Part shown: positions 16,099-51,846 of the stretch, piece after piece
Position numbering within the stretch: the first letter of the stretch is position 1
Layout: each line of letters opens with the position of its first letter
Assembly (NCBI RefSeq): GCF_026151205.1
Contig: NC_087080.1
Span: 1,318,268-1,382,267, forward strand
Direction of reading: 5' to 3'
From: Bolinopsis microptera
Lineage: Eukaryota; Ctenophora; Tentaculata; Lobata; Bolinopsidae
DNA length: 64,000 nt
Notes under the pieces: generated by a model
Told to the model about the DNA's origin: nothing
The model's input: only the letters and a program-made list of their open reading frames with translations
Databases searched by the model: none
Translations under genes and position numbers: made by a program

Positions 16099-16199
16099 TG
16101 TTCATGGACTGTACTATTAGAGTACTGATGTAATAATAATAAATAAATGTTTCACAGCTTGGCAATTGATCGGTGTAGTTGGTGTTGTACAGTGTACAC

Positions 16200-20643: not shown

Positions 20644-20933
20644 ATTGGCTAACAAAAGACAAGGGTAAAAGGGTTGCGCAAAGTATAATGCTGGGAACTG
20701 GAGATTCAGGACGGAACTGTACGCTTTTAAACAACTGATCCAGGACTGTGATATAAATCCGATCAAAAAGTAATCTCATGGGATTCACATTACAATAACT
20801 ACTAGTACAATAACTTGATAGCTATGGAACTTCTGGAGCGTTTACTCGTTAGAGAGCAGATTTACAATTTCTTTTCTTCAGGAATATGGGTAAATTCATT
20901 AAATATGCGATATGAATTAGATTATTATGCGTG

Positions 20934-23900
20934 ATCTGCGTACAGTACACTGATTGGTTAATAGCAGTCACGTGTTCTGCGTACAGTACACTGATTGGTT
21001 AATAGCAGTCACGTGTTCTGCGTACATTACACTGATTGGTTAATAGAAGTCATGTGTTCTGCGTACAGTACACTGATTGGTTAATAGCAGTCACGTGTTC
21101 TGCGAACAGTACACTGATTGGTTAGTTGCAGTCACGTGTTCTGCGTACAGTACACTGATTGGTTAATAGCAGTCACATGTTCTGCGTACAGTACACTGAT
21201 TGGTTAATAGCAGTCACATGTTCTGCGTACAGTACACTGATTGGTTAATAGCAGTCACGTGTTCCGCGTACAGTACACTGATTGGTTAATAGCAGTCACG
21301 TGTTCTGCGTACAGTACACTGATTGGTTAATAGCAGTCACGTGTTCAGCGTACAGTACACTGATTGGTTAATAGCAGTCACGTGTTCTGCGTACAGTACA
21401 CTAATTGGTTAATAGCAGTCACGTGTTTTGCGTACAGTACACTGATTGGTTAATAGCAGTCACGTGTTTTGCGTATAGTACACTGATTGGTTAATAGCAG
21501 TCACGTGTTCTGCGTACAGTACACTGATTGGTTAATAGCAGTCACGTGTTCTGCGTACAGTACACTAATTAGTTAATAGCAGTCACTTGTTCTGCGTACA
21601 GTACACTGATTGGTTAATAGCAGTCACGTGTTTTGCGTATAGTACACTGATTGGTTAATAGCAGTCACGTGTTTTGCGTATAGTACACTGATTGGTTAAT
21701 AGCAGTCATGTGTTCTGCATACAGTACACTGATTGATTAATAGCAGTCACGTGTTCTGCGTACAGTACACAGATTGGTTAATAGCAGTCACGTGTTCTGC
21801 GTACAGTACACTGATTGGTTAATAGCAGTCACGTGTTCTGCGTCCAGTACACTGATTGGTTAATAGCAGTCACGTGTTCTGCGTACAGTGCACTAATTGG
21901 TTAATAGCAGTCACGTGTTCTGCGTACAGTACACTGATTGGTTAATAGCAGTCACGTGTTCTGCGTCCAGTACACTGATTGGTTAATAGCAGTCACGTGT
22001 TCTGCGTACAGTACACTGATTGGTTAATAGCATTCACTTGTTCTGCGTACAGTACACTGATTGGTTAATAGCAGTCACGTGTTCTGCGTCCAGTACACTG
22101 ATTGGTTAATAGCAGTCACGTGTTCTGCGTACAGTACACTGATTGGTTAATAGCAGTCACATGTTCCGCGTACAGTACACTGATTGGTTAATAGCAGTCA
22201 CATGTTCCGCGTACAGTACACTGATTGGTTAATAGCAGTCACGTGTTCTGCGTACAGTACACTGATTGGTTAATAGCAGTCACGTGTTCTGCGTACAGTA
22301 CACTGATTGGTTAATAGCAGTCACGTGTTCTGCGTACAGTACACTGATTGGTTAATAGCAGACACCTGTTCTGCGTACAGTACACTGATTAGTTAATAGC
22401 AGTCACGTGTTCTGCGTACAGTACATTGATTGGTTAATAGCAGTCACGTGTTCTGCGTACAGTACACTGATCGGTTAATAGCAGTCATGTGTTCTACGTA
22501 CAGTACACTAATTGGTTAATATAGCAGTCACGTGTTCTACGTACAGTACACTAATTGGTTAATAGCAGTCACGTGTTCTGCGTACAGTACACTGATTGGT
22601 TAATAGCAGTCACGTGTTCTGCGTCCAGTACACTGATTGGTTAATAGCAGTCACGTGTTCTGCGTACAGTGCACTAATTGGTTAATAGCAGTCACGTGTT
22701 CTGCGTACAGTACACTGATTGGTTAATAGCAGTCACGTGTTCTGCGTACAGTACACTGATTGGTTAAAAGCAGTCACGTGTTCTGCGTCCAGTACACTGA
22801 TTGGTTAATAGCAGTCACGTGTTCTGCGTACAGTACACTGATTGGTTAATAGCATTCACTTGTTCTGCGTACAGTACACTGATTGGTTAATAGCAGTCAC
22901 GTGTTCTGCGTACAGTACACTGATTGGTTAATAGCAGTCACGTGTTCTGCGTACAGTACACTGATTGGTTAATAGCAGTTACGTGTTCTGCGTACAATAC
23001 ACTGATTGGTTAATAGCAGTCACGTGTTCCGCGTACAGTACACTGATTGTTTAATAGCAGTCACGTGTTCTGCGTACAGTACACTGATTGGTTAATAGCA
23101 GTCACGTGTTCTGCGTACAATACACTGATTGGTTAATAGCAGTCACGTGTTCCGCGTACAGTACACTGATTGTTTAATAGCAGTCACGTGTTCTGCGTCC
23201 AGTACACTGATTGGTTAATAGCAGTCACGTGTTCTGCGTCCAGTACACTGATTGGTTAATAGCAGTCACGTGTTCTGCGTACAGTACACTGATTGGTTAA
23301 TAGCATTCACTTGTTCTGCGTACAATACACTGATTGGTTAATAGCAGTCACGTGTTCCGCGTACAGTACACTGATTGGTTAATAGCAGTCACGTGTTCTG
23401 CGTACAGTACACTGATTGGTTAATAGCAGTCACGTGTTCTGCGTACAATACACTGATTGGTTAATAGCAGTCACGTGTTCTACATACAGTACACTGATTG
23501 TTTAATAGCAGTCACGTGTTCTGCGTACAGTACACTGATTGGTTAATAGCAGTCACGTGTTCCGCGTACAGTACACTGATTGGTTAATAGCAGTCACGTG
23601 TTCTGCGTACAGTACACTGATTGGTTAATAGCAGTCACGTGTTCTGCGTACAGTACACTGATTGGTAAATAGCAGTCACGTGTTCCGCGTACAGTACACT
23701 GATTGGTTAATAGCAGTCACGTGTTCTGCGTACAGTACACTGATTGGTTAATAGCAGTCACGTGTTCTGCGTACAGTACACTGATTGTTTAATAGCAGTC
23801 ACGTGTTCTGCGTACAGTACACTAATTGGTTAATAACAGTCACGTGTTCTGCGTACAGTACACTGATTGGTTAATAGCAGTCACGTGTTCTGCGTACAGT

Positions 23901-26488
23901 ACACTGATTGGTTAATAGCTGTCACGTGTTCTGCGTACAGTACACTGATTGGTTAATAGCAGTCACGTGTTCTGCGTACAGTACACTGATTGGTTAATAG
24001 CAGTCACGTGTTCCGCGTACAGTACACTGATTGGTTAATAGCAGTCACGTGTTCTGCGTACAGTACACTGATTGGTTAATAGCAGTTACGTGTTCTGCGT
24101 ACAGTACACTGATTGGTAAATAGCAGTCACGTGTTCCGCGTACAGTACACTGATTGGTTAATAGCAGTCACGTGTTCTGCGTACAGTACACTGATTGGTT
24201 AATAGCAGTCACGTGTTCTGCGTACAGTACACTGATTGGTTAATAGCAGTCACGTGTTCTACGTACAGTACACTGATTGGTTAATAGCAGTCACGTGTTC
24301 TGCGTACAGTACACTAATTGGTTAATAGCAGTCACGTGTTTTGCGTACAGTACACTGATTGGTTAATAGCAGTCTAGTGTTCTGCGTACAGTACACTGAT
24401 TGGTTAATAGCAGTCACGTGTTCTGCTTAAATTACATTGATTGGTTAATAGCAGTCACTTGTTCTGCGTACAGAACACTGATTGGTTAATAGCAGTCACG
24501 TGTTCTGCGTACAGTACACTGTTTGGTTAATAGCAGTCACGTGTTCTGCGTACAGTACACTGATTGGTTAATAGCAGTTACGTGTTCTGCTTAAATTACA
24601 TTGATTGGTTAATAGCAGTCACGTGTTCTGCGTACAGTACACTGATTGGTTAATAGCAGTCACGTGTTCTGCGTACAGTACACTGATTGGTTAATAGCAG
24701 TCACGTGTTCTGCGTACAGTACACTGATTGGTTAATAGCAGTCACGTGTTCTGCGTACAGTACACTGATTGGTTAACAGCAGTCACGTGTTCTGCGTACA
24801 GAACACTGATTGGTTAATAGCAGTCACGTGTTCTGCGTACAGAACACTGATTGGTTAATAGCAGTCACGTGTTCTGCGTACAGTACACTGATTGGTTAAT
24901 AGCAGTCACGTGTTCTGCGTAAATTACACTAATTGGTTAATAGCAGTCACATGTTCTGCATACAGTACACTGATTGGTTAATAGCAGTCACTTGTTCTGC
25001 GTACAGTACACTGATTGGTTAATAGCAGTTACGTGTTCTGCGTACAGTACACTGATTGGTTAATGGCAGTCACTTGTTCTGCGTACAGTACACTGATTGG
25101 TTAATAGCAGTCACGTGTTCTGCGTACAGTACACTGATTGGTTAATAGCAGTCACGTGTTCTGCGTACAGTACACTGATTGGTTAATAGCAGTCACGTGT
25201 TCTGCGTACAGTACACTAATTGGTTAATAGCAGTCACGTGTTCTGCGTACAGTACACTGATTGGTTAATAGCAGTCACGTGTTCTGCGTAAATTACACTA
25301 ATTGGTTAATAGCAGTCACGTGTTCTGCGTACAGTACACTGATTGGTTAATAGCAGTCACGTGTTCTGCGTAAATTACACTGATTGGTTAATAGCAGTCA
25401 CGTGTTCAGCGTACAGTACACTGATTGGTTAATAGAAGTTACGTGTTCTGCGTACAGTACACTGATTGGTTAATAGCAGTCACGTGTTCTGCGTACAGTA
25501 CACTGATTGGTTAATAGCAGTCACGTGTTCTGCGTAAATTACACTGATTGGTTAATAGCAGTCACGTGTTTTGCGTACAGTACACTGATTGGTTAATAGC
25601 AGTCACGTGTTCTGCGTAAATTACACTAATTGGTTAATAGCAGTCACATGTTCTGCATACAGTACACTGATTGGTTAATAGCAGTCACTTGTTCTGCGTA
25701 CAGTACACTGATTGGTTAATAGCAGTCACGTGTTCTGCGTACAGTACACTGATTGGTTAATAGCAGTCACGTGTTCTGCGTACAGTACACTGATTGGTTA
25801 ATAGCAGTCACGTGTTCTGCGTAAATTACACTAATTGGTTAATAGCAGTCACTTGTTCTGCGTACAGTACACTGATTGGTTAATAGCAGTCACTTGTTCT
25901 GCGTACAGTACACTGATTGGTTAATAGCAGTCACGTGTTCTACGTACAGTACACTGATTGGTTAATAGCAGTCACGTGTTCAGCGTACAGTACACTGATT
26001 GGTTAATAGCAGTCACGTGTTCTGCGTACAGTACACTAATTGGTTAATAGCAGTCACGTGTTCTGCGTACAGTACACTGATTGGTTAATAGCAGTCACAT
26101 GTTCCGCGTACAGAACACTGATTGGTTAATAGCAGTCACGTGTTCCGCGTACAGTACACTGATTGGTTAATAGCAGTCACGTGTTCTGCATACAGTACAC
26201 TGATTGGTTAATAGCAGTCACGTGTTCTGCGTACAGTACACTGATTGGTTAATAGCAGTCACGTGTTCTGCGTACAGTACACTGATTGGTTAATAGCAGT
26301 CACGTGTTTGCGTACAGTACACTGATTGGTTAATAGCATTCACGTGTTCTGCGTACAGTACACTGATTGGTTAATAGCAGTCACGTGTTCTGCGTACAGT
26401 ACACTGATTGGTTAATAGCAGTCACGTGTTCTGCGTACAGTACACTGATTGGTTAATAGCAGTCACGTGTTCTGCGTACAGTACACTG
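20934..26488. repeat. 41-bp satellite, about 135 copies
   Basis: Head-to-tail units at a 41-bp period contain 'ACTGATTGGTTAATAGCAG', 'TCACGTG' and 'TTCTGCGTACAGTAC'. Every unit therefore carries an inverted CCAAT box (ATTGG), a GTTAAT and, in most copies, a CACGTG E-box. Single-base variants are shared by non-adjacent copies (for example GTAAATTACAC, GCGTCCAGT), a sign of higher-order amplification. No spacers occur, so it is not a CRISPR array, and no ORF exists. Confidence 0.97.
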
Positions 26489-26512
26489 AAAAAGTATTGT
26501 ACTTTTTCAGTG
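26484..26512. other. perfect 13-bp stem palindrome at the satellite end
   Basis: CACTGAAAAAGTA, a 3-base TTG loop, and the exact reverse complement lie where the last 41-bp unit breaks off. Confidence 0.9.
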
Positions 26513-27440
26513 AGGTAACACAATAAAGCTGTGTATCATTGCGATGTTATGTGGTATGTATTATATATACAATTATGTGTTATCTTTTAATAACAATGAT
26601 AATCTGCACTTGTGACTATCACTTGTATAATATAGCCTCTATTGGGGTTCGTGGTGGTATCAGGTTGCCATGCCGCCATGGTGATGTGGTTATTATAGTC
26701 GGTAGTTCATCATCATCACCACTGGTTATGCTTTTAGTTTAATAAACTTTCTATTGATGATGTTGTTATGCTTTTAGTTTTCCAGTCGTAGTTCTGTTTG
26801 TCACAAATTATAGGCGCTGGTTTTTGACACAACAAAAACATGTTGGAATATCACGTGACAGGGGGGTTTGTAAAATCGTAGTATAATTTCTAAACACTAG
26901 TATATCTATTAAAGTGTTAATACGTGATTATGCAACGGATCCCGAAGGACATTCTGATTTCTGCGGCGTTTTACATAATGAACGAGTAGCTTTGAAACAA
27001 TTGAAAAATAATTAGGCACCACTAATTGACCACTAATTTACCACTAATTTACCACTAATTTACCACTTAAGATTTAGTGACTGACCTCATCTCGATTACA
27101 GACCACAAAAAACCGTTTCTCCTGCAAAGTTCACCTCATCAGTAATTACTTTTTAATTACTCAGAATATTTTTGCTAAGTAAGTAGATTGCTGGAAACGT
27201 AAGAATTCTCAATTTCTAACTGTAGTTACTTTGTAGACGTGAGTTCATGGCTGAATTCTCCAAAGACGGACTTAAGATTAGTGTTCTTATAAGTTAGTTC
27301 CGTGTTTCGCACGTGTTTCGCACGTGTTTCGCACGTGTTTCGCACGTTAACTGAACTTTGTCGTTGGGAAAATATTGATCTTTTTAACTTAAACTCTGAC
27401 GTATATCAGAGATCCCTATTTCGCTATTTAGTACATAATA
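26513..27440. other. intergenic, nothing recognised beyond short repeats
   Basis: Holds four copies of 'GTGTTTCGCAC' near 27300-27345 and three of 'TTTACCACTAA' near 27035. No gene is supported. Confidence 0.55.
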
Positions 27441-27447
27441 TACAATG

Positions 27448-27653
27448 TACAGTAAAACTTTAACTCTGATTTACCACGCCCCAATTTACTGCAAACCCCG
27501 GTTTACCGCGGGCATTTCCTTCCCCAAATAGGACTTGACAATGTGATCAAGTTGACATACATTAAATCAACAACAAAAAACCCAATTCCTCGAACCCCGA
27601 TTTACCGTGTAGACTTTCCCAAAAACTCAGCGGTAAATAGTAGTTTTAGTGTA
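27448..27653. mobile_element. short MITE with TACAGTAAAACT ends
   Basis: 'TACAGTAAAACT' at the left and 'AGTTTTAGTGTA' at the right are near-perfect inverts, with GGTTTACCGCGG inside. The CAGTAAAAC-type ends resemble Tigger/pogo termini. About 206 bp, with no coding capacity. Confidence 0.55.
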
Positions 27654-27714
27654 GTAAGGAGTTGTAGTAGTTTTGAGCTGAATGTTTTGAGCTGAATGGG
27701 ATGGTTGTCTGTAT

Positions 27715-27920
27715 TAGGGTGTCTTTTGCTTCCTCTTTTGCTTCCTCTTTTGCTTTCTCTTTTGCTTTCTCTTTTGCTTTCTCTTTTGCTTTCTCTTTTG
27801 CTTTCTCCTTTGCTTTCTCCTTTGCTTTCCCTTTTGCTGTCTCTTTTGCTTTCTCCTTTGCTTTCCCTTTTGCTTTCTCTTTTGCTTTCTCTTTTGCATT
27901 CTCTTTTGCTTTCTCTCGTT
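27715..27920. repeat. 12-bp 'TTTTGCTTTCTC' array
   Basis: About 17 copies with small variants. Arg/Lys/Glu/Ser-rich frames on the minus strand and Leu/Ser- or Phe/Ala-rich frames on the plus strand are artefacts of a unit whose length is a multiple of three. Confidence 0.9.
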
Positions 27921-28142
27921 TTGAAGTTATCTTGCTCTTTTAATCGCTGATTACGCTGATCAAAAGTCACTATACAGGAAGATAGTGCATCTTTCTTAGT
28001 TACTAAGAGCCCCTTGCTGTAGTTCCTGTAGTTACTGCAGCAATAGTTACTGTAGTAACAAGTACTTGCTGTAGTTACTGTAGTTACTGTAGTAACAGTT
28101 TGTTACTTCGAGGATACCGTTACCGTAGTAACTGTAGTTAGG

Positions 28143-31100
28143 ATGCCGTTACCGTGGTCAGAAGTGTGCGACCCCTCAGATGGATACACTCCCCGGTGGA
28201 GTGGAACTGAGGAGTTTATAGAGGACATTACCTACAGAATATGGGAGAAAGGGGACCGGGAATTTATAAAGGAAACGTACAGTGATACCTGTCCTGTAAT
28301 AGCTTTATCAGGTTGTTATAAAGGAAACGTACAGTGATACCTGTCCTGTGATAGCTTTATCAGGTTGTTATAAAGGAAACGTACAGTGATACCTGTCCTG
28401 TAATAGCTTTATCAGGTTGTTATCTGTAGTGATACCTGTCCTGTAATAGCTTTATCAGGTTGTTATCTGTAGTGATACCTGTCCTGTAATAGCTTTATCA
28501 GGTTGTTATCTGTAGTGATACCTGTCCTGTAATAGCTTTATCAGGTTGTTATAAAGGAAACGTACAGTGATACCTGTCCTGTAATAGCTTTATCAGGTTG
28601 TTATAAAGGAAACGTACAGTGATACCTGTCCTGTAATAGCTTTATCAGGTTGTTATCTGTAGTGATACCTGTCCTGTAATAGCTTTATCAGGTTGTTATC
28701 TGTAGTGATACCTGTCCTGTAATAGCTTTATCAGGTTGTTATCTGTAGTGATACCTGTCCTGTAATAGCTTTATCAGGTTGTTATAAAGGAAACGTACAG
28801 TGATACCTGTCCTGTAATAGCTTTATCAGGTTGTTATCTGTAGTGATACCTGTCCTGTAATAGCTTTATCAGGTTGTTATCGTTACAGTGATACCTGTCC
28901 TGTAATAGCTTTATCAGGTTGTTATCTTACAGTGATACCTGTCCTGTAATAGCTTTATCAGGTTGTTATCTTACAGTGATACCTGTCCTGTAATAGCTTT
29001 ATCAGGTTGTTATTTTACAGTGATACCTGTCCTGTAATAGCTTTATCAGGTTGTTATCGTTACAGTGATACCTGTCCTGTAATAGCTTTATCAGGTTGTT
29101 ATAAAGGAAACGTACAGTGATACCTGTCCTGTTATAACTTTATCAGGTTGTTATCGTTACAGTGATACCTGTCCTGTAATAGCTTTATCAGGTTGTTATC
29201 GTTACAGTGATACCTGTCCTGTAATAGCTTTATCAGGTTGTTATCTTACAGTGATACCTGTCCTGTAATAGCTTTATCAGGTTGTTATCGTTACAGTGAT
29301 ACCTGTCCTGTAATAGCTTAGCTTTATCAGGTTGTTATAAAGGAAACGTACAGTGATACCTGTCCTGTTATAACTTTATCAGGTTGTAATCGTTACAGTG
29401 ATACCTGTCCTGTAATAGCTTTATCAGGTTGTTATCGTTACAGTGATACCTGTCCTGTAATAGCTTTATCAGGTTGTTATCTTACAGTGATACCTGTCCT
29501 GTAATAGCTTTATCAGGTTGTTATAAAGGAAACGTACAGTGATACCTGTCCTGTAATAACTTTATCAGGTTGTTATAAAGGAAACTTACAGTGATACCTG
29601 TCCTGTAATAGCTTTATCAGGTTGTTATAAACGTACAGTGATACCTGTCCTGTAATAACTTTATCAGGTTGTTATCGTTACAGTGATACCTGTCCTGTAA
29701 TAGCTTTATCAGGTTGTTATCGTTACAGTGATACCTGTCCTGTAATAGCTTTATCAGGTTGTTATCGATTGTGCTCTTAGTAAGATGAGATTGAGAACTA
29801 ACACATATTATACTGCCGTTTACAGCAGTATACTATCAATATACATTCTCCCTGCTTCAATATTGGTGACTAAATTCTCCGAGCAGAAAGTCTTATGTTA
29901 TATTCGGTTAGGATGCAATTATTTATGAGTCGGATTGTTTATTATTAAAATTTGAGTTGAAAGTAAGTTTTAAGTTAACTTGCAGGTAACTGTGAGGGAG
30001 CAGACACGATACTAAAAAACACTACAGTAACTATAGTAACTGTAGTTAACTATAGTAACTATAGTAACTATAGTAACTATAGTAACTATAGTAACTATAG
30101 TAACTATAGTAACTATAGTAACTATAGTAACTATAGTAACTATAGTAACTGTAGTTAACTGTAGTAACTGTACTCTGTAGTTAACTGTAGTATCTGTTGC
30201 TATAGTAACTGTAATAACATGTTGTTACTTTGACAGGTAACTGCGAGGGAGCAGACACGATACTAAAGAACACTACAGATCTACTGGAACAGTTCCCTGA
30301 CAGAACGCTCTACCCCTGTGATATACTGTGGAACGGTAACAACACAGCGGGTTACCACTCTTCCCAACTCATCAGTACAAAGTGCACTTATCATCACACT
30401 AACTCTGCGGGGAGTCAGTACAGTTGGGCCTCTCACCTCAAGCAAGCTCGGATATGGGTTAGTAATTATAGAAATTATAGAAATTAGAAAGATCTGTACA
30501 GTTAAACACGTGTGTCAGATCAAAACTGAAGATTTAAAAGAAAATAATCTCAGTAATCAAACAGAAAATAAAAGGAACGATTTCAAGATGAACTCTGATT
30601 ACTGAGACTTCAAAAATCACAGCTTACTTTTAGGAAATCTTTCACGAAATAAGTTGCAAGTAACATTTCTAGTCTCAAGAATGTGGGTCTCTTCGAATTA
30701 TTCACTGTAGTAACTATAGTATTAGTAACTATAGTAACTATAGTATAACTATAGTAACTATAGTAACTGTTGCTATAGTAACTGTAGTAACTGTAGTTTA
30801 CTGTATTAGCTATAGTAACTGTTGCTATAGGAACTGTAGTAACTGTTGCTATAGTAACTGTAGTAACATGTTGCTATTTTGACAGGTAATAGTACACCGT
30901 ATAGTAACTATAGTAACTGTAGTAACTGTTACTATAGTAACTGTAGTAACATGTTGTTACTTTGACAGGTAATAGTACACCGTGTAGTAACTATAGTAAC
31001 TACAGTAACTGTAGTAACTGTTGCTATAGTAACTGTAGTAACATGTTGTTACTTTGACAGGTAATAGTACACCGTGTAGTAACTATAGTAACTATAGTAA

Positions 31101-34100
31101 CTGTAGTAACTGTTGCTATAGTAACTGTAGTAACATGTTGTTACTTTGACAGGTAATAGTACACCGTGTAGTAACTATAGTAACTGTAGTAACTGTTGCT
31201 ATAGTAACTGTAGTAACATGTTGTTACTTTGACAGGTAATAGTACACCGTGTAGTAACTATAGTAACTATAGTAACTATAGTAACTGTAGTAACCGTTGC
31301 TATAGTAACTGTAGTAAAATGTTGTTACAGGTAATAGTACACCGTGTAGTAAAGGACGGTGTGATATTGCGGGAGTGGGTAGTGAGTGATAACAAGAGTC
31401 TGTACCAGCAGTTAAGAGTGAACCAGGAGGAGGTGGCTACACGTTGCGCGGAGAAGTGGCTCAAGGATAAACTGGATCCGGAGAAGAGCGAGTTTTGTCA
31501 TCTCAGGTTTAATTTTAAAATTTAAATTTTCAATTTACAGTTTTATTCCGCATATTTTCAATTCTGATCGAATTTATTGCATCTCATTCAAGTTTTTTTC
31601 ATTGAACTGATGTTTAGCCAAAACGAGTCCATTTTGGTAATTACATGTAAAATTCCTGTTTAATTCTTAATTCCTATCATCTCAGTTGGCTGGCAGCAGA
31701 GTTCCAGCGGGTTCAGAACACGGGGAGTATCGGAGGGGACATCAGGTTAAACCTGCAAAACATAACACCCGCTCAGCGGCCCATGTATCAGTACTTAGGT
31801 CAGAGGGTGGCTAAAATTTACCACAGAGCGTGGGGACCTGAGGGGATGGGGTCCCGGGGCAAGTTTGAGGAGCTGGTGAAACTATTGTACCACCCTCACG
31901 CCAGGTTTGAAACTATTGTACCACCCTCACGCCAGGTTTGAAACTATTGTACCACCCTCACGCCAGGTTTGAAACTATTGTACCACCCTCACGCCAGGTT
32001 TGAAACTATTGTACCACCCTCACGCCAGGTTTGAAACTATTGTACCACCCTCACGCCAGGTTTGAAAATATTGTACCACCCTCACGCCAGGTTTGAAACT
32101 ATTGTACCACCCTCACGCCAGGTTTGAAACTATTGTACCACCCTCACGCCAGGTTTGAAACTATTGTACCACCCTCACGCCAGGTTTGAAACTATTGTAC
32201 CACCCTCACGCCAGGTTTGCAACTATTGTACCACCCTCACGCCAGGTTTGAAACTATTGTACCACCCTCACGCCAGGTTTGAAACTATTGTACCACCCTC
32301 ACGCCAGGTTTGAAACTATTGTACCACCCTCACGCCAGGTTTGAAACTATTGTACCACCCTCACGCCAGGTTTGAAACTATTGTACCACCCTCACGCCAG
32401 GTTTGAAACTATTGTACCACCCTCACGCCAGGTTTGAATCTATTGTACCACCCTCACGCCAGGTTTGAATCTATTGTACCACCCTCACGCCAGGTTTGAA
32501 ACTATTGTACCACCCTCACGCCAGGTTTGAAACTATTGTACCACCCTCACGCCAGGTTTGAAAATATTGTACCACCCTCACGCCAGGTTTGAAACTATTG
32601 TACCACCCTCACGCCAGGTTTGAAACTATTGTACCACCCTCACGCCAGGTTTGAAACTATTGTACCACCCTCACGCCAGGTTTGAAACTATTGTACCACC
32701 CTCACGCCAGGTTTGAAACTATTGTACCACCCTCACGCCAGGTTTGCAACTATTGTACCACCCTCACGCCAGGTTTGAAACTATTGTACCACCCTCACGC
32801 CAGGTTTGAAACTATTGTACCACCCTCACGCCAGGTTTGAAACTATTGTACCACCCTCACGCCAGGTTTGAAACTATTGTACCACCCTCACGCCAGGTTT
32901 GAAACTATTGTACCACCCTCACGCCAGGTTTGAAACTATTGTACCACCCTCACGCCAGGTTTGAATCTATTGTACCACCCTCACGCCAGGTTTGAATCTA
33001 TTGTACCACCCTCACGCCAGGTTTGAAACTATTGTACCACCCTCACGCCAGGTTTGAAACTATTGTACCACCCTCACGCCAGGTTTGAAAATATTGTACC
33101 ACCCTCACGCCAGGTTTGAAACTATTGTACCACCCTCACGCCAGGTTTGAAACTATTGTACCACCCTCACGCCAGGTTTGAAACTATTGTACCACCCTCA
33201 CGCCAGGTTTGAAACTATTGTACCACCCTCACGCCAGGTTTGAATCTATTGTACCACCCTCACGCCAGGTTTGAAACTATTGTACCACCCTCACGCCAGG
33301 TTTGAAACTATTGTACCACCCTCACGCCAGGTTTGAAACTATTGTACCACCCTCACGCCAGGTTTGAAACTATTGTACCACCCTCACGCCAGGTTTGAAA
33401 CTATTGTACCACCCTCACGCCAGGTTTGAAACTATTGTACCACCCTCACGCCAGGTTTGAAACTATTGTACCACCCTCACGCCAGGTTTGAAACTATTGT
33501 ACCACCCTCACGCCAGGTTTGAAACTATTGTACCACCCTCACGCCAGGTTTGAAACTATTGTACCACCCTCACGCCAGGTTTGAAACTATTGTACCACCC
33601 TCACGCCAGGTTTGAAACTATTGTACCACCCTCACGCCAGGTTTGAAACTATTGTACCACCCTCACGCCAGGTTTGAAACTATTGTACCACCCTCACGCC
33701 AGGTTTGAAACTATTGTACCACCCTCACGCCAGGTTTGAAACTATTGTACCACCCTCACGCCAGGTTTGAAACTATTGTACCACCCTCACGCCAGGTTTG
33801 AAACTATTGTACCACCCTCACGCCAGGTTTGAAACTATTGTACCACCCTCACGCCAGGTTTGAAACTATTGTACCACCCTCACGCCAGGTTTGAAACTAT
33901 TGTACCACCCTCACGCCAGGTTTGAAACTATTGTACCACCCTCACGCCAGGTTTGAAACTATTGTACCACCCTCACGCCAGGTTTGAAACTATTGTACCA
34001 CCCTCACGCCAGGTTTGAAACTATTGTACCACCCTCACGCCAGGTTTGAAACTATTGTACCACCCTCACGCCAGGTTTGAAACTATTGTACCACCCTCAC

Positions 34101-35879
34101 GCCAGGTTTGAAACTATTGTACCACCCTCACGCCAGGTTTGAAACTATTGTACCACCCTCACGCCAGGTTTGAAACTATTGTACCACCCTCACGCCAGGT
34201 TTGAAACTATTGTACCACCCTCACGCCAGGTTTGAAACTATTGTACCACCCTCACGCCAGGTTTGAAACTATTGTACCACCCTCACGCCAGGTTTGAAAC
34301 TATTGTACCACCCTCACGCCAGGTTTGAAACTATTGTACCACCCTCACGCCAGGTTTGAAACTATTGTACCACCCTCACGCCAGGTTTGAAACTATTGTA
34401 CCACCCTCACGCCAGGTTTGAAACTATTGTACCACCCTCACGCCAGGTTTGAAACTATTGTACCACCCTCACGCCAGGTTTGAAACTATTGTACCACCCT
34501 CACGCCAGGTTTGAAACTATTGTACCACCCTCACGCCAGGTTTGAAACTATTGTACCACCCTCACGCCAGGTTTGAAACTATTGTACCACCCTCACGCCA
34601 GGTTTGAAACTATTGTACCACCCTCACGCCAGGTTTGAAACTATTGTACCACCCTCACGCCAGGTTTGAAACTATTGTACCACCCTCACGCCAGGTTTGA
34701 AACTATTGTACCACCCTCACGCCAGGTTTGAAACTATTGTACCACCCTCACGCCAGGTTTGAAACTATTGTACCACCCTCACGCCAGGTTTGAAACTATT
34801 GTACCACCCTCACGCCAGGTTTGAAACTATTGTACCACCCTCACGCCAGGTTTGAAACTATTGTACCACCCTCACGCCAGGTTTGAAACTATTGTACCAC
34901 CCTCACGCCAGGTTTGAAACTATTGTACCACCCTCACGCCAGGTTTGAAACTATTGTACCACCCTCACGCCAGGTTTGAAACTATTGTACCACCCTCACG
35001 CCAGGTTTGAAACTATTGTACCACCCTCACGCCAGGTTTGAAACTATTGTACCACCCTCACGCCAGGTTTGAAACTATTGTACCACCCTCACGCCAGGTT
35101 TGAAACTATTGTACCACCCTCACGCCAGGTTTGAAACTATTGTACCACCCTCACGCCAGGTTTGAAACTATTGTACCACCCTCACGCCAGGTTTGAAACT
35201 ATTGTACCACCCTCACGCCAGGTTTGAAACTATTGTACCACCCTCACGCCAGGTTTGAAACTATTGTACCACCCTCACGCCAGGTTTGAAATTATTGTAC
35301 CACCCTCACGCCAGGTTTGAAACTATTGTACCACCCTCACGCCAGGTTTGAATCTATTGTACCACCCTCACGCCAGGTTTGAAACTATTTTACCACCCTC
35401 ACGCCAGGTTTGAATCTCCACAAACAAACAGCACCGATTGTACGGGGTGGACGGAGTTGACTTGCTTGTATGATACGTTTATTCTTGGTGGCCAGCAGGG
35501 TAAAGAAGTGATCATGACACTGGACTGGGTCATCATTAAACCTGGTCACGACAGAAGGAAGATTTTAACGAACGGAGCCACACCAAACGCCTGGAGATAC
35601 CCCTATCCTGAGGATGTTAACCTCCAAATGGAGCTGGAGAGTAAGTTTGCCAACTCTGACCAGGTATCAGAGTCCTTCACCATGTCTATAAGATGGTGTT
35701 TGGTGGGCTACCAGAAGCAAGAAAACCCTGATATTTTAGTGCCGTTGGTGCTGTTGGCGGAGTCGCATTTGGATTGTGTGGGTTTCAGAGTTATACGGGA
35801 CATTACTGTTTACGATAGGGTGGCTGTAGATGCCCAGGTTAAGCTAACTACTGAAGTTGTTCATAATGTAATAATATAA
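28143..35879 (+). CDS. two-domain SnoaL/NTF2-like protein of bacterial type, five exons, 418 aa
   Basis: Exons are 28143-28311, 30237-30457, 31331-31506, 31686-31904 and 35408-35879; phases 1, 0, 2, 2 all join, giving 418 codons. The first half has 'RIWEKGDREFIKETYSD', 'LLEQFPDRTLYPCDILWNG', 'HSSQLISTKCTYHHT' and 'KDGVILREWVVSDNKSL'. This is the pattern of bacterial SnoaL-like (NTF2-fold, polyketide-cyclase-like) proteins that often carry two such domains. The second half, 'LVKLLYHPHARFESP' to 'FRVIRDITVYD', fits the second domain, with an insertion of about 35 residues. Bacterial relatives are usually hypothetical or ester-cyclase-annotated, so the substrate is unknown. Horizontal acquisition followed by intron gain is an inference. 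Exon ends border large tandem arrays. The present C-terminus (VHNVII) comes from array sequence; the last array copy reads VHNVQF before a stop. Confidence 0.75.
28265..29765. repeat. array of about 32 copies of the exon 1 end plus 5' splice site
   Basis: Each unit (about 43-54 bp) contains 'GTGATACCTGTCCTGTAATA', then 'GCTTTATCAGGTTGTTAT'. The first copy is the true 3' end of exon 1, with donor CAG|GTTGTT at 28311/28312. Linkers alternate among AAAGGAAACGTACA, CTGTA, CGTTACA and CTTACA. Every copy therefore carries an intact-looking donor. Confidence 0.95.
29978..30236. repeat. decayed copy of exon 2 start followed by TAGTAACTA array
   Basis: Positions 29984-30022 repeat the first ~38 bases of exon 2 behind their own AG (CTTGCAG|GTAACTGTGAGGG). 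They run into about 15 copies of 'AGTAACTAT', then a second acceptor (TTTGACAG) and the true exon 2 at 30237. Confidence 0.85.
30710..31330. repeat. array repeating the exon 3 acceptor, six to seven copies
   Basis: Units of about 80-100 bp end in 'GTTGTTACTTTGACAGGTAA' followed by 'TAGTACACCGTGTAGTAA', which is the acceptor and first six codons of exon 3, then TAGTAAC repeats. The last copy, with acceptor at 31329-31330, continues into the real exon. Confidence 0.92.
31905..35407 (+). repeat. intron 4: exactly 113 copies of a 31-bp unit derived from the flanking exon
   Basis: The unit 'GTTTGAAACTATTGTACCAC' plus CCTCACGCCAG repeats head to tail with rare single-base variants (GAATCT, GCAACT, GAAAAT, GAAATT). 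Splicing after CCAG at 31904 and before G at 35408 restores the frame LVKLLYHPHARFESP. The interval is 3,503 bp = 113 x 31. The period is not a multiple of three, so the array must be removed for the full protein to be made. Confidence 0.95.
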
Positions 35880-36700
35880 TAACTGTAGTAACTATAGTAA
35901 CTGTTGCTATAGTAACTGTTGCTATAATAACTGCTATAGTAACTGCTATAGTAACTGTAGATGCCCAGGTTAAGCTAACTACTGAAGTTGTTCATAATGT
36001 AATAATATAATAACTGTAGTAACTATAGTAACTGTTGCTATAGTAACTGTTGCTATAGTAACTGTTGCTATAGTAACTGTTGCTATAGTAACTGTTATAG
36101 TAACTGTAGATGCTCAGGTTAAGCTAACTACTGAAGTTGTTCATAATGTAATAATATAATAACTGTAGTAACTATAGTAACTGTTGCTATAGTAACTGTT
36201 GCTATAGTAACTGTTGCTATAGTAACTGTAGATGCCCAGGTTAAGCTAACTACTGAAGTTGTTCATAATGTAATAATATAATAACTGTAGTAACTATAGT
36301 AACTGTTGCTATAGTAACTGTTGCTATAGTAACTGTTGCTATAGTAACTGTTGCTATAGTAACTGTTGCTATAGTAACTGTTGCTATAGTAACTGTTGCT
36401 ATAGTAACTGTTGCTATAGTAACTGTTGCTATAGTAACTGTAGATGCCCAGGTTAAGCTAACTACTGAAGTTGTTCATAATGTAATAATATAATAACTGT
36501 AGTAACTATAGTAACTGTTGCTATAGTAACTGTTGCTATAGTAACTGTTGCTATAGTAACTGTTGCTATAGTAACTGTTGCTATAGTAACTGTTGCTATA
36601 GTAACTGTTGCTATAGTAACTGTTGCTATAGTAACTGTTGCTATAGTAACTGTAGATGCTCAGGTTAAGCTAACTACTGAAGTTGTTCATAATGTTCAGT
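35831..36700 (+). repeat. array repeating the last coding segment and stop codon, six copies
   Basis: Copies of 'GATGCCCAGGTTAAGCTAAC' and 'TACTGAAGTTGTTCATAATG' begin near 35830, 35950, 36108, 36230, 36444 and 36653, separated by TAGTAACTGTTGCTA repeats. The first is the end of exon 5. The last continues into unique sequence (TTCAGTTTTGACATT). Confidence 0.93.
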
Positions 36701-36704
36701 TTTG

Positions 36705-37030
36705 ACATTTTTCAGAGGCGAGGTTTGTAGAACTTTTGAACAATTGGGATAGGAAATTCAGATGTTTAATATACTTTCGATTTAATTGATATTTTTATGG
36801 GCTGCTGCACTTTACTTGAGTAAATTACAAGTTTTTAATGAACCCAATCGAAACAAAATAATTTGACATTGTATTGAAGATGAAAATGTATAATATATTA
36901 CAGGAATGAAATTTTAAAAGAACTCAGCACAATAAAATCAACATTATACTATTATAGTTGAATTAAAAATAAATAACCATTCGTTATTATCATAGCTTTC
37001 ATTCCCGAATCATAATTTATCCGTGAAGAC
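36705..37030. other. intergenic, nothing recognised
   Basis: AT-rich sequence between the convergent 3' ends of the SnoaL-like gene and precursor B. Confidence 0.6.
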
Positions 37031-37132
37031 TTGCCTACTTTAATAGTTCTCACTGACATTATAACTTTAACGTCTCCATTTCTTTCTTTCCAGATTTCAC
37101 CCCCAGCACACGTTTTCTACATTCCTTTCCCT

Positions 37133-38731
37133 CTATTCCCCCTGGAGCATACGTTTTCTACATTTCTTACCCCCTTTTCCTTCTGGGCACATCACTTGTC
37201 GTTTCTCCACAGAGCCTTGTTTCATACGTTGTCTACAAGCTCTACCCCCTTTTCCTCCTGCACACATCACTTGTCGTTTCTCCACAGCGCCTTGTTTCAT
37301 ACGTTGTCTACAAGCTCTACCCCCTTTTCCTTCTGGGCACATCACTTGTCGTTTCTCCACAGAGCCTTGTTTCATACGTTGTCTACAAGCTCTACCCCCT
37401 TTTCCTTCTGGGCACATCACTTGTCGTTTCTCCACAGAGCCTTGTTTCATACGTTGTCTACAAGCTCTACCCCCTTTTCCTCCTGCACACATCACTTGTC
37501 GTTTCTCCACAGTGCCTTGTTTCATACGTTGTCTACAAGCTCTACCCCCTTTTCCTCCTGCACACATCACTTGTCGTTTCTCCACAGCGCCTTGTTTCAT
37601 ACGTTGTCTACAAGCTCTACCCCCTTTTCCTCCTGCACACATCACTTGTCGTTTCTCCACAGAGCCTTGTTTCATACGTTGTCTACAAGCTCTACCCCCT
37701 TTTCCTCCTGCACACATCACTTGTCGTTTCTCCACAGCGCCTTGTTTAGTACGTTGTCTACAAGCTCTACCCCCTTTTCCTTCTGGGCACATCACTTGTC
37801 GTTTCTCCACAGCGCCTTGTTTCATACGTTGTCTACAAGCTCTACCCCCTTTTCCTTCTGGGCACATCACTTGTCGTTTCTCCACAGAGCCTTGTTTAGT
37901 ACGTTGTCTACAAGCTCTACCCCCTTTTCCTTCTGGGCACATCACTTGTCGTTTCTCCACAGAGCCTTGTTTAGTACGTTGTCTACAAGCTCTACCCCCT
38001 TTTCCTCCTGCACACATCACTTGTCGTTTCTCCACAGCGCCTTGTTTCATACGTTGTCTACAAGCTCTACCCCCTTTTCCTCCTGCACACATCACTTGTC
38101 GTTTCTCCACAGAGCCTTGTTTCATACGTTGTCTACATTTCTTACCCCCTTTTCCTTCTGGGCACATCACTTGTCGTTTCTCCACAGAGCCTTGTTTCAT
38201 ACGTTTTCTACATTTCTTACCCCCTTTTCCTCCTGCACACATCACTTGTCGTTTCTCCACAGAGCCTTGTTTAGTACGTTGTCTACAAGCTCTACCCCCT
38301 TTTCCTTCTGGGCACATCACTTGTCGTTTTTCCACAGCGCCTTGTTTCATATGTTGTTTTCTGCATTTCTTACCTTCTATTCCTTTTTTTCTTGCGCACA
38401 TCATTTGCGCCCTACAAGCTACTGGTCCATCAGCACAGGGAAATTGTCGCTCTTCAACCTGCTCCCGCAACTGCTCTCGCACCTGCTCTACATCTTCTAA
38501 CTGCATTTCTTCCTCAAATAACTCCTCGACACTGAAATGTAATTCATCGTAACACAGCGTATGTGATAACGAGCAATTACAGCTGCAATCACAAATAACC
38601 TTTTTAAAAGTTTTCGACGATAAGAATAACATGACATTCTGTAAAATAAAACCGGATGATTAATAATACCTTGCACCCTGAGCAGAGGATAGTGCTAGGA
38701 GGGTCAGACCCAGAATCACAGTTATCTGCAT
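37133..38731 (-). CDS. secreted multi-copy Cys-peptide precursor B, two exons, 486 aa
   Basis: Exon 1 (38731-38670) encodes 'MQITVILGLTLLALSSAQG', a signal peptide, with a phase-2 GTATTA donor. Exon 2 (38531-37133) starts behind TTTCAG with an acidic spacer (VEELFEEE, EDVEQ). A divergent four-cysteine first unit follows, then 16 copies of a 25-residue unit. Each unit has VEKR, then Q-V-M-C, two variable residues (PE or AG), GKGG, a second Cys eight residues after the first, and R-x-R. Lys-Arg before Gln is a classic prohormone-convertase site and would expose Gln for pyroglutamate formation, so about 16 disulfide-looped peptides per precursor are predicted. Architecture matches precursor A 17 kb upstream, on the same strand. 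The last unit is shortened and runs into an early stop, and decayed repeat sequence continues below 37133. Function unknown. Confidence 0.82.
37150..38400 (-). repeat. 75-bp coding repeat of precursor B
   Basis: Units recur at exactly 75 bp (25 codons), 16 full copies. Differences cluster at the PE/AG dipeptide, RA/KK before the second Cys, M/T and S/A/T. Long open frames on the plus strand (489 and 346 codons) are the antisense of this repeat. Confidence 0.95.
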
Positions 38732-38978: not shown

Positions 38979-39212
38979 TGGATAGTGTTGATCCTCAGAT
39001 TGTAGTCAAATTAAAAGCTCAGCGGTTAACTCCTATATTACAGGGACAAAAGGAAATCGTGGCATGTACGGGATTGCGATTTTTTTCCATTATTTGCGAC
39101 AAATTTTATATGTCGTCTGTTATAAAAAATGACGAAAAATCGCGGTATCGCGATTTTTGGCCAAAATAATCGCGATTTTCTTTTGTCCCTGCTATATTAC
39201 TGCTAAATTACT

Positions 39213-41070
39213 GCTAAGTCCGATAAGGTACTTGGTGGTATAAGCTCACTGGTGACAGATAAGGTACTTGCTGGTATCAGCTCACTGGTGACAGATAAGG
39301 TACTTGGTGGTATCAGCTCACTGGTGACAGATAAGGTACTTGCTGGTATCAGCTCACTGGTGACAGATAAGGTACTTGCTGGTATCAGCTCACTGGTGAC
39401 AGATAAGGTACTTGCTGGTATCAGCTCACTGCTGACAGATAAGGTACTTGCTGGTATCAGCTCACTGGTGACAGATAAGGTACTTGCTGGTATCAGCTCA
39501 CTGGTGACAGATAAGTTACTTGGTGGTATCAGCTCACTGGTGACAGATAAGGTACTTGCTGGTATCAGCTCACTGGTGACAGATAAGGTACTTGCTGGTA
39601 TCAGCTCACTGCTGACAGATAAGGTACTTGGTGGTATCAGCTCACTGGTGACAGATAAGGTACTTGCTGGTATCAGCTCACTGGTGACAGATAAGGTACT
39701 TGCTGGTATCAGCTCACTGGTGACAGATAAGGTACTTGCTGGTATCAGCTCACTGGTGACAGATAAGGTACTTGGTGGTATCAGCTCACTGGTGACAGAT
39801 AAGATACTTGCTGGTATCAGCTCACTGGTGACAGATAAGGTACTTGGTGGTATCAGCTCACTGGTGACAGATAAGGTACTTGGTGGTATCAGCTCACTGG
39901 TGACAGATAAGGTACATGCTGGTATCAGCTCACTGGTGACAGATAAGGTACATGCTGGTATCAGCTCACTGGTGACAGATAAGGTACTTGCTGGTATCAG
40001 CTCACTGGTGACAGATAAGGTACTTGGTGGTATCAGCTCACTGCTGACAGATAAGGTACATGCTGGTATCAGCTCACTGGTGACAGATAAGGTACTTGCT
40101 GGTATCAGCTCACTGGTGACAGATAAGGTACTTGCTGGTATCAGCTCACTGGTGACAGATAAGGTACTTGGTGGTATCAGCTCACTGGTGACAGATAAGG
40201 TACTTGGTGGTATCAGCTCACTGGTGACAGATAAGGTACTTGCTGGTATCAGCTCACTGGTGACAGATAAGGTACTTGCTGGTATCAGCTCACTGGTGAC
40301 AGATAAGGTACTTGCTGGTATCAGCTCACTGGTGACAGATAAGGTACTTGCTGGTATCAGCTCACTGGTGACAGATAAGGTACTTGCTGGTATCAGCTCA
40401 CTGGTGACAGATAAGGTACTTGCTGGTATCAGCTCACTGGTGACAGATAAGGTACTTGGTGGTATCAGCTCACTGGTGACAGATAAGGTACTTGGTGGTA
40501 TCAGCTCACTGGTGACAGATAAGGTACTTGCTGGTATCAGCTCACTGGTGACAGATAAGGTACTTGGTGGTATCAGCTCACTGGTGACAGATAAGGTACT
40601 TGCTGGTATCAGCTCACTGCTGACAGATAAGGTACTTGCTGGTATCAGCTCACTGGTGACAGATAAGCTACTTGCTAGTATCAGCTCACTGGTGACAGAT
40701 AAGCTACTTGCTGGTATCAGCTCACTGGTGACAGATAAGCTACTTGCTAGTATCAGCTCACTGGTGACAGATAAGGTACTTGGTGGTATCAGCTCACTGG
40801 TGACAGATAAGGTACTTGCTGGTATCAGCTCACTGGTGACAGATAAGGTACTTGCTGGTATCAGCTCACTGGTGACAGATAAGGTACTTGGTGGTATCAG
40901 CTCACTGGTGACAGATAAGGTACTTGCTGGTATCAGCTCACTGGTGACAGATAAGGTACTTGGTGGTATCAGCTCACTGGTGACAGATAAGGTACTTGCT
41001 GGTATCAGCTCACTGGTGACAGATAAGGTACTTGCTGGTATCAGCTCACTGGTGACAGATAAGGTACAGA
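39213..41070. repeat. 36-bp satellite, about 51 copies, open in one frame
   Basis: The unit 'GACAGATAAGGTACTTGCTG' plus GTATCAGCTCACTGGT repeats with point variants. One frame stays open for 610 codons (TDKVLAGISSLV), but the period is a multiple of three and every recurrent variant (GCT/GGT, GTG/CTG, CTT/CAT, GTA/CTA/TTA/ATA) changes the residue. Protein selection is therefore not supported. Confidence 0.95.
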
Positions 41071-41089
41071 AGTTATGGCGCTAAAATGT

Positions 41090-44199: not shown

Positions 44200-45632
44200 C
44201 CCTGACCCTGACCCTGACCCTGACCCTGACCCTGACCCTGACCCTGACCCTGACCCTGACCCTGACCCTGACCCTGACCCTGACCCTGACCCTGACCCTG
44301 ACCCTGACCCTGACCCTGACCCTGACCCTGACCCTGACCCTGACCCTGACCCTGACCCTGACCCTGACCCTGACCCTGACCCTGACCCTGACCCTGACCC
44401 TGACCCTGACCCTGACCCTGACCCTGACCCTGACCCTGACCCTGACCCTGACCCTGACCCTGACCCTGACCCTGACCCTGACCCTGACCCTGACCCTGAC
44501 CCTGACCCTGACCCTGACCCTGACCCTGACCCTGACCCTGACCCTGACCCTGACCCTGACCCTGACCCTGACCCTGACCCTGACCCTGACCCTGACCCTG
44601 ACCCTGACCCTGACCCTGACCCTGACCCTGACCCTGACCCTGACCCTGACCCTGACCCTGACCCTGACCCTGACCCTGACCCTGACCCTGACCCTGACCC
44701 TGACCCTGACCCTGACCCTGACCCTGACCCTGACCCTGACCCTGACCCTGACCCTGACCCTGACCCTGACCCTGACCCTGACCCTGACCCTGACCCTGAC
44801 CCTGACCCTGACCCTGACCCTGACCCTGACCCTGACCCTGACCCTGACCCTGACCCTGACCCTGACCCTGACCCTGACCCTGACCCTGACCCTGACCCTG
44901 ACCCTGACCCTGACCCTGACCCTGACCCTGACCCTGACCCTGACCCTGACCCTGACCCTGACCCTGACCCTGACCCTGACCCTGACCCTGACCCTGACCC
45001 TGACCCTGACCCTGACCCTGACCCTGACCCTGACCCTGACCCTGACCCTGACCCTGACCCTGACCCTGACCCTGACCCTGACCCTGACCCTGACCCTGAC
45101 CCTGACCCTGACCCTGACCCTGACCCTGACCCTGACCCTGACCCTGACCCTGACCCTGACCCTGACCCTGACCCTGACCCTGACCCTGACCCTGACCCTG
45201 ACCCTGACCCTGACCCTGACCCTGACCCTGACCCTGACCCTGACCCTGACCCTGACCCTGACCCTGACCCTGACCCTGACCCTGACCCTGACCCTGACCC
45301 TGACCCTGACCCTGACCCTGACCCTGACCCTGACCCTGACCCTGACCCTGACCCTGACCCTGACCCTGACCCTGACCCTGACCCTGACCCTGACCCTGAC
45401 CCTGACCCTGACCCTGACCCTGACCCTGACCCTGACCCTGACCCTGACCCTGACCCTGACCCTGACCCTGACCCTGACCCTGACCCTGACCCTGACCCTG
45501 ACCCTGACCCTGACCCTGACCCTGACCCTGACCCTGACCCTGACCCTGACCCTGACCCTGACCCTGACCCTGACCCTGACCCTGACCCTGACCCTGACCC
45601 TGACCCTGACCCTGACCCCGACCCTGACCCTA
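44200..45632. repeat. (CCCTGA)n = (TCAGGG)n array, about 238 copies
   Basis: An almost perfectly pure 1.4-kb hexanucleotide array, preceded by 'GACAATTGACCCC' copies (44108-44200) and ending CCCCGACCCTGACCCTAAC. TCAGGG differs by one base from the animal telomere repeat TTAGGG, and the final CCCTAAC is a TTAGGG unit. The long Gly-Ser and Val-Arg frames on the minus strand are artefacts. Confidence 0.98.
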
Positions 45633-51060: not shown

Positions 51061-51176
51061 ATATAACTTGTAATATATAACAAAGAAAACCCTCATTCGC
51101 AATGAACACATTTATAATAAAACCTGAACACTCAGCAGGGAGTGTCAACAACTGCAGAGCTCCATCCCTGCTGGAG

Positions 51177-51846
51177 TTACCATAGTTATCATAGTTACCA
51201 TAGTTACCATAGTTACCATATTTACCATATTTACCATATTTACCATAGTTACCATAGTTACCATAGTTACCATAGTTACCATAGTTACCATAGTTACCAT
51301 AGTTACCATAGTTACCATATTTACCATAGTTACCATAGTTACCATAATTACCATAGTTACCATAGTTACCATAGTTACCATAGTTACCATAGTTACCATA
51401 GTTACCATAGTTACCATAGTTACCATAGTTACCATAGTTACCATAGTTACCATATTTACCATATTTACCATAGTTACCATAGTTACCATAGTTACCATAG
51501 TCACCATAGTTACCATAGTTACCATAGTTACCATAGTTACCATAGTTACCATAGTCACCATAGTTACCATAGTTACCATAGTTACCATAGTTACCATAGT
51601 TACCATAGTTACCATAGTTACCATAGTTACCATAGTTACCATAGTTACCATAGTTACCATAGTTACCATAGTTACCATAGTTACCATAGTTACCATAGTT
51701 ACCATAGTTACCATAGTTACCTTAGTTACCATAGTTACCATAGTTACCATAGTTACCATAGTTACCATAGTTACCATTGTTACCATTGTTACCATAGTTA
51801 CCATAGTTACCATAGTTACCATAGTTACCATAGTTACCACTACCAC
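51177..51846. repeat. 9-bp CATAGTTAC array, about 74 copies
   Basis: (CATAGTTAC)n with scattered CATATTTAC, CATAGTCAC and CATTGTTAC variants. Tyr/His/Ser and Met/Val/Thr frames are artefacts. Confidence 0.97.

What the first reader, a model, noticed from the sequence alone, without database searches (positions are those of the whole stretch)
31885..35425. Intron made of exactly 113 copies of the exon junction
Intron 4 of the SnoaL-like gene contains nothing but a 31-bp unit whose sequence is the end of exon 4 plus the start of exon 5. Its length is exactly 113 x 31 bp. Each unit carries both a usable donor (AG|GTTTGA) and acceptor (CACGCCAG|G), so removing any whole number of units restores the same protein. 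This looks like intron birth by tandem duplication of a coding AGGT segment, followed by satellite-scale growth. Intron gain by tandem duplication has been proposed before; an intron that is still a pure array of this size would be unusual.
Basis: partly seen in the sequence, partly recalled or inferred. Interest (0 to 1): 0.88.

Follow-up and report, generated by a model that had tools for sequence, protein, structure and literature searches.

The report
Intron built from 113 exon-junction copies
One intron of an animal gene is an almost pure array of 113 copies of the coding sequence it interrupts, so the way that intron was born, by repeated copying of a stretch of gene, can still be read directly.

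Summary
Splicing six exons gives 418 aa that align end to end, without gaps, to an unnamed homologue, P0002, at 87.6%. Three paralogues encode the protein in one unbroken frame, and a relative's ORF on a 618-kb contig runs through the sites of introns 2-5. Each unit is exon-4 end joined to exon-5 start with nothing between, so no intron was there when duplication began. Birth by tandem duplication of a coding AGGT segment is well supported; splicing is inferred, since no RNA was available.

One claim is wrong: removing "any whole number" of units does not restore the protein. With 1-7 units left (those tested) translation stops after residue 273.

The gene holds other gained or growing introns: intron 5 is a second junction array, intron 3 a dispersed element with a 9-bp direct repeat, and introns 1-2 carry exon-edge arrays. 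Intron gain by duplication and exon-edge minisatellites ("mirages") are known; my searches showed no purer or larger case. New variant of a known kind.

The parts
28143..28311 (+). exon 1 (from ATG)
28312..30236 (+). intron 1, 1925 bp; 5' part is an array of exon-1 end plus donor (TRF 28278-29765), 3' part holds a second copy of the exon-2 start at about 29,985
   Evidence: 31 exon-1 hits, 1 exon-2 hit; 66% exon-like
30237..30457 (+). exon 2
30458..31330 (+). intron 2, 873 bp; units repeat the acceptor plus the first 22 nt of exon 3
   Evidence: 5 exon-3 hits; 13% exon-like
31331..31506 (+). exon 3
31507..31685 (+). intron 3, 179 bp; copy of a dispersed element, bounded by direct repeat TCATCTCAG
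31686..31904 (+). exon 4
31905..35407 (+). intron 4: 113 tandem copies of the 31-bp exon4|exon5 junction unit
35408..35837 (+). exon 5
35838..36663 (+). intron 5 (or optional 3' array): the uninterrupted exon5|exon6 junction occurs 6 times in all, spaced by CTATAGTAAC-type satellite
36664..36705 (+). exon 6, ending ..HNVQF stop as in homologue P0002

Best explanation
Intron 4 is a spliceosomal intron born from coding DNA. SHOWN: the coding sequence carries a short imperfect direct repeat (TGAAACT / TGAATCT) 31 bp apart, around a proto-splice site CACGCCAG|GTTTGA; the 31-bp segment stands in 113 extra tandem copies; without them the gene encodes an intact protein matching P0002. INFERRED: slippage or template switching at the short repeat made the first copies, and unequal exchange then expanded them (variants recur with a 17-unit shift; 65 successive units are identical). 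INFERRED: one extra copy would shift the frame and meet TGA, and 31 nt is too short for an ordinary animal intron (recalled), so the viable state probably needed two or more extra copies at once, or cover from the paralogues. INFERRED: the outermost donor (exon 4) and acceptor (last unit) are used. Each partial excision rebuilds a CAG|GTTTGA junction, an acceptor joined to a donor as in recursive-splicing ratchet points, so stepwise excision could also run to completion. With 1-7 units left the frame stops after residue 273, so incomplete products would be truncated and probably degraded.
For: Exact 113 x 31 array, 100 of 113 units identical; the whole intron is exon-like, and 110 of 113 joined-exon matches cover the junction with at least 5 bp on each side. 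Spliced product of 418 aa aligns 418/418 with P0002 without gaps. Paralogues L010, L011, L012 with single frames of 417-419 aa. P0004, on a 618,211-bp contig and so genomic, reads ungapped from residue 65 to 416 through the sites of introns 2-5. 20 of 21 rows over 35% local identity are ungapped at the junction. Pairwise dN/dS with paralogues about 0.17 (dN 0.205-0.21, dS 1.22-1.26). Short repeat at the 31-bp shift, 6 of 10 bases matching. The last unit alone carries a G>T that adds a pyrimidine before its acceptor. The donor matches 6 of 9 bases of CAG|GTAAGT, as do those of introns 1, 2 and 5; intron 3 has 5 (consensus recalled).
Against: No transcript was available, so splicing is unproven; P0002 may be cDNA or genomic and belongs to an unnamed source. 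P0015 has a gap near the junction, and over all rows only 35 of 48 that cover it are ungapped; at the sites of introns 2 and 3 only 22 of 92 and 22 of 86 are (the gapped rows are mostly distant). The paralogues could be retrocopies, so their lack of introns alone does not prove the ancestral state; their protein also ends earlier, at a TAG. dS is near saturation and dN/dS averages over both lineages; a very recent break would not show. Copy number rests on one assembly.
Confidence: 0.75

Rival explanations
1. The array is a recent break, not an intron: a minisatellite grew inside an exon, this allele or gene is dead or truncated after residue 273, and the paralogues do the work.
For: The array is young in its present form (65 identical units in a row); three paralogues with intact frames exist; 1-7 retained units give a stop; no RNA available.
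Against: The other exons show no frame break and GT/AG sites are present at all five introns; pairwise dN/dS about 0.17, though a recent break would not show there; the unit carries both splice signals. Exon-like copies also fill parts of introns 1, 2 and 5.
Confidence: 0.18
2. An older intron stood at this site, was lost precisely, and the array grew in the healed exon (loss before gain), or an exon-edge array overgrew and erased it.
For: Arrays in introns 1 and 2 take in one exon edge with adjoining intron sequence, so arrays do grow on introns here.
Against: No non-exon DNA in the 3,503 bp; the close relatives examined read through the site.
Confidence: 0.04
3. Copy number or purity is an assembly artefact: a real but shorter or more varied junction array was inflated or homogenised by the assembler.
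For: 65 identical units in a row would suit consensus smoothing; the authors of an amphioxus study describe one exon-edge array as aberrantly assembled in the draft genome (PMC3087553, passages).
Against: 13 variant units, four of which recur at +17 units, keep real structure; the only N run in the window is at 12-111.
Confidence: 0.03

Closest known systems
[quoted passage not shown] ATP2A1, potato RdRp; PMC4974935 and PMC3443670, passages)
   Same: A coding segment with AGGT is duplicated and supplies donor and acceptor; the protein is unchanged.
   Different: In the passages I saw, the cases involve one or a few copies; here 113 near-pure copies fill the intron, and the source junction is visible in every unit.
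24-bp repeat introns in fission yeast (SPOG_01682, SOCG_00815; PMC3629103, passages)
   Same: Introns made of tandem copies of an exonic segment with a proto-splice site, with some EST support.
   Different: Introns across four and two duplicates (as told in PMC4974935, passage) against 113.
Minisatellite 'mirages' of amphioxus Adh3 and globin genes (PMC3087553, passages)
   Same: Tandem repeats that take in exon-intron boundaries; matches introns 1 and 2 here and the TRAPP-like gene in L038. The authors proposed them as a source of introns.
   Different: Those units span an existing boundary (6 and 3 units in two haplotypes of one globin gene); the unit of intron 4 spans an exon-exon junction with no intron in it.
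Variable tandem repeats in human segmental duplications (PMC2812944, passages)
   Same: Roughly 30-bp units; at exon-intron boundaries they can form novel introns.
   Different: About 4 repeats on average, and most such introns also have transcripts that keep the repeat.
Cryptococcus CNN00420 repeat-expansion introns (PMC2395259, passages)
   Same: Repeat expansion adds introns.
   Different: There whole pre-existing introns are copied; here the unit has no intron.
Introners (PMC9860276, passages)
   Same: Intron 3 and apparent introns at three other loci hold one dispersed element, with a flanking direct repeat of 7-9 bp in two of the four.
   Different: The element has a short-repeat tail, more like a non-LTR element than the cut-and-paste transposons named there; mechanism not shown.

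Membership tests
[quoted passage not shown]
   113 of 113 units
[quoted passage not shown]
   L010-L012 and P0001-P0006, P0008 read through; P0001 and P0004 lie on contigs of 9,653 and 618,211 bp; the others lie on contigs of 1.3-1.8 kb that may be cDNA
[quoted passage not shown]
   418/418 ungapped alignment with P0002
[quoted passage not shown]
   no RNA data
Mirage minisatellite (exon-edge array) | Tandem units include an exon edge and adjoining intron sequence | tested here: met
   introns 1 and 2 and L038
Mirage minisatellite (exon-edge array) | The same, for intron 4 | tested here: not met
   the unit holds exon sequence only; it works alike but is not a boundary array
Mirage minisatellite (exon-edge array) | Length instability between alleles | not testable with these tools
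   one assembly only
Recursive-splicing ratchet point | Acceptor immediately followed by donor | tested here: met
   CACGCCAG|GT at every unit join, GTTTGA in 111 of 113 units; definition from the start of the abstract of PMC8605326 in a search listing
Recursive-splicing ratchet point | Stepwise excision in cells | not testable with these tools
   no RNA data
Introner (intron 3) | Same dispersed element forms introns in several genes | tested here: met
   window intron 3, L021, L022, L127 as apparent introns; of 16 other copies fetched (L021-L031, L127-L131) these three had coding flanks, the other 13 were not translated; only some of the listed copies were fetched
Introner (intron 3) | Target-site duplication | tested here: inconclusive
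   9 bp in intron 3, 7 bp in L022, only 5 bp in L021; not computed for L127
SnoaL-like polyketide cyclase (Pfam PF07366) | Score above the curated cut-off | tested here: not met
   15.2 bits against 28.4; paralogue 19 bits
SnoaL-like polyketide cyclase (Pfam PF07366) | Near full-length homology to bacterial ester cyclases | tested here: met
   P0017, P0020 and P0026 at 29% over about residues 13-407 of the window protein, 32-33% to the paralogue; named loci largely gammaproteobacteria (best 80 of 134)

The most novel reading that the evidence does not exclude
This animal lineage gains introns now, by satellite-scale growth of coding DNA: an exon junction turns into a minisatellite in which every unit is a recursive-splicing ratchet point, so introns of any copy number can be excised stepwise and copy number drifts freely between individuals. 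Exon-edge arrays, junction arrays and an introner-like element acting in one gene would make it a place to watch introns being born by three routes.
Probability: 0.3. Interest if true: 0.87.

Novelty: new variant of a known kind. Interest (0 to 1): 0.72.

Why it matters
How spliceosomal introns arise is an old question, because source sequences are usually erased by the time a gain is found. Here the source is present in 113 copies and the empty state in three paralogues, so each step (first duplication, expansion, choice of splice sites) can be tested. It also bears on how splicing copes with 114 near-equivalent junctions where only one net outcome gives the protein.

Tried and rejected
Coding array: rejected, 37 stops in each frame. 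Dispersed satellite: rejected, the unit junction was found only here. RNA gene: no Rfam match at gathering threshold in 26,000-38,000. Unique part of intron 1 as a dispersed element: one match, itself. Shared 3' end of introns 1 and 2 as an introner: 6 places with up to 2 mismatches, all in this gene. Viral-contig scan with P0002: no relative. Naming the organism: Wnt genes are present (17 matches, none in the 14 control genomes), which to my knowledge means an animal; of 12 kynurenine aminotransferase hits the nearest (73%) is unnamed, six are named animals at 48-53%, one bears the name Dentiscutata erythropus (a fungus, recalled) at 49%. Genome size and scaffold lengths resemble a ctenophore assembly (PMC10232365, passages), which is a resemblance, not proof. 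Bacterial transfer of the gene: possible, but the bacterial rows sit across a very long branch, so I do not rely on it. A kinase-family survey meant to find many introns gave mostly single-frame domains and did not serve. ORFs near arrays were prepared for a Pfam scan (479 ORFs) but that scan was not run; I judged by eye the list (111 distinct array-crossing ORFs counted, window ones left out of the printout) and tested one of them by Pfam, the TRAPP-like one, as a 54-residue piece.
Full report
WHAT IS THERE. Between the last base of exon 4 (31,904) and the first of exon 5 (35,408) lie 3,503 bp, 113 units of 31 bp and nothing else; 100 units are identical and 13 differ by one base. All 113 begin with GT and end with CACGCCAG. 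Variants at units 11, 18, 19 and 22 recur at 28, 35, 36 and 39, a 17-unit shift, and units 45-109 are identical, so growth has been recent and probably blockwise. In the whole assembly (264.65 Mb, 232 contigs) the exact junction pattern gave 100 matches, all here, which is the number in the array.

THE GENE. Six exons (28,143-36,705) give 418 aa that align 418/418 without a gap to P0002, 87.6% identical. P0002 comes from one 1,754-bp contig; whether that is cDNA or genomic DNA is unknown. P0002 also ends in HNVQF, which the window reaches only through the last copy of the 3' repeat. The family name is weak: Pfam SnoaL scores 15.2 bits against a cut-off of 28.4, but bacterial proteins, several named ester cyclase, are homologous over almost the full length. 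In a tree of 55 rows (window, three paralogues, 51 of the 91 database homologues) the window gene pairs with P0002 (100/100), next to the paralogues and P0001 (94/85), with the bacterial rows across a very long branch.

NO INTRON BEFORE. Three paralogues, two on contig C8 and one on C10, encode the protein in one frame of 417-419 aa; the aligned protein ends at a TAG about 12 residues before the window protein does. They could be retrocopies. Independent of them, P0004, on a 618,211-bp contig and therefore genomic, reads ungapped from residue 65 to 416 through the sites of introns 2-5. Of 21 rows above 35% local identity that cover the intron-4 junction (three are the paralogues), 20 are ungapped there and one (P0015) is not; over all rows it is 35 of 48. 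At the other sites the all-row counts are 86 of 87 (intron 1), 22 of 92 (intron 2), 22 of 86 (intron 3) and 13 of 15 (intron 5); for introns 2 and 3 the read-through evidence therefore rests on the close relatives. The strongest argument is internal: the unit is exon 4 end plus exon 5 start with no intron in it, so when the first duplication happened the junction was whole.

HOW IT STARTED. In the sequence with the array taken out, TGAAACT and TGAATCT lie 31 bp apart. Slippage or template switching between them yields exactly this unit, and six units carry the exon-5 version of the variable base. One added unit shifts the frame and meets TGA; 31 nt is, from general knowledge, below the usual lower size of animal introns. 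So either several units came at once or a broken intermediate was tolerated, which three paralogues would ease. This is inference.

A CORRECTION. With 1 to 7 units left (those tested) translation stops after residue 273, in the same place each time, because the next GTTTGA is read as GTT TGA. Only net removal of all 113 works. There are 114 near-equivalent junctions and a single good outcome: first donor, last acceptor, or a series of steps that adds up to the same. Since each step rebuilds CAG|GTTTGA (GTTTGC in two units), the array has the form of a row of recursive-splicing ratchet points. The last unit, whose acceptor must be used, is the only one with a G>T that adds a pyrimidine before it (15 against 14 of 20); one case may be chance. 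The donor is of the same quality as the gene's other donors, 6 of 9 consensus bases.

THE OTHER INTRONS. Intron 5 repeats the uninterrupted exon5|exon6 junction: six copies in all, four junction-spanning hits inside the intron, with CTATAGTAAC satellite between; but reading on from exon 5 gives HNVII and a stop, nearly the same protein, so it need not be spliced. Intron 3 is a dispersed element (41 matches, the query itself included, in each of two capped searches) bounded by TCATCTCAG on both sides. The same element sits as an apparent intron in a subtilase-like gene (L021; Pfam 17.2 bits, below its 21.8 cut-off), in an ORF that looks to me like a seven-helix receptor although its only Pfam matches are two Mad3/BUB1 models below cut-off (L022), and in an ORF whose only match is a DUF below cut-off (L127). 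Thirteen other copies were fetched but not translated. Introns 1 and 2 carry arrays that include exon-1 end and exon-3 start, the type called mirages in amphioxus. They share a 3' end found in 6 places, all in this gene. Intron 1 may be older: P0006 has unrelated sequence upstream of that site.

IS IT WIDER? In 14 random 10-kb stretches of the genome, tandem repeats cover 14.1%, against 38.4% of the window. By eye I found one clear exon-edge array there: 11 copies, the real one included, of the start of the last exon of a TRAPP-like gene in L038 (TRAPP Pfam match E 1.7e-8, above cut-off). This is a lower bound, not a rate.

WHAT IS KNOWN. Tandem-duplication intron gain is an accepted model (PMC4974935, PMC3443670, passages). 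Small multi-copy cases exist in fission yeast (PMC3629103, passages) and in human segmental duplications, about 30 bp x 4 (PMC2812944, passages). Exon-edge minisatellites are known in amphioxus (PMC3087553, passages). In my searches (open-licence papers only, listings plus the passages cited) I saw no intron that is a pure array of its own junction on this scale. That is absence from those searches, not proof. I file it as a new variant of a known kind.

WEIGHT. Observation certain; origin well supported; splicing inferred. Pairwise dN/dS near 0.17 says the protein has been kept, but dS is near saturation and a very recent break would not show.

Noticed in passing
31507-31685; L021, L022, L127: One dispersed element with a TTTAATTCCTG-type repeat tail forms an apparent intron at four loci; introner-like in an animal genome.
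   Followed up: partly
L038 20-617: 11 tandem copies (the real one included) of acceptor plus last-exon start of a TRAPP-like gene: an exon-edge array in another gene.
   Followed up: partly
5988-6038: A kynurenine aminotransferase-like gene has 2.7 copies of a 19-bp unit covering its exon end and donor.
   Followed up: partly
30021-31317 and 35892-36653: TAGTAAC-type satellites lie in introns 1, 2 and 5 of the gene; related GTTACC-type arrays occur elsewhere in the window (e.g. 51175-51839).
   Followed up: no
20930-26489: 41-bp satellite of about 136 copies, the longest array in the window.
   Followed up: no
44200-45631: Six-base repeat CCCTGA, about 239 copies, 99% matches.
   Followed up: no
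37133-38659 (-): 508-aa open frame with about sixteen 25-residue repeats; period 75 bp keeps the frame, so possibly a coding minisatellite.
   Followed up: no
39203-41084: 36-bp array open over 625 codons on both strands.
   Followed up: no
14691-16151 (-): 486-aa open frame that looks like a non-LTR reverse transcriptase (by eye only).
   Followed up: no
G000, PF00069 search: Many of the scored protein-kinase domains lie in one unbroken frame, suggesting many intron-poor genes in this genome.
   Followed up: no
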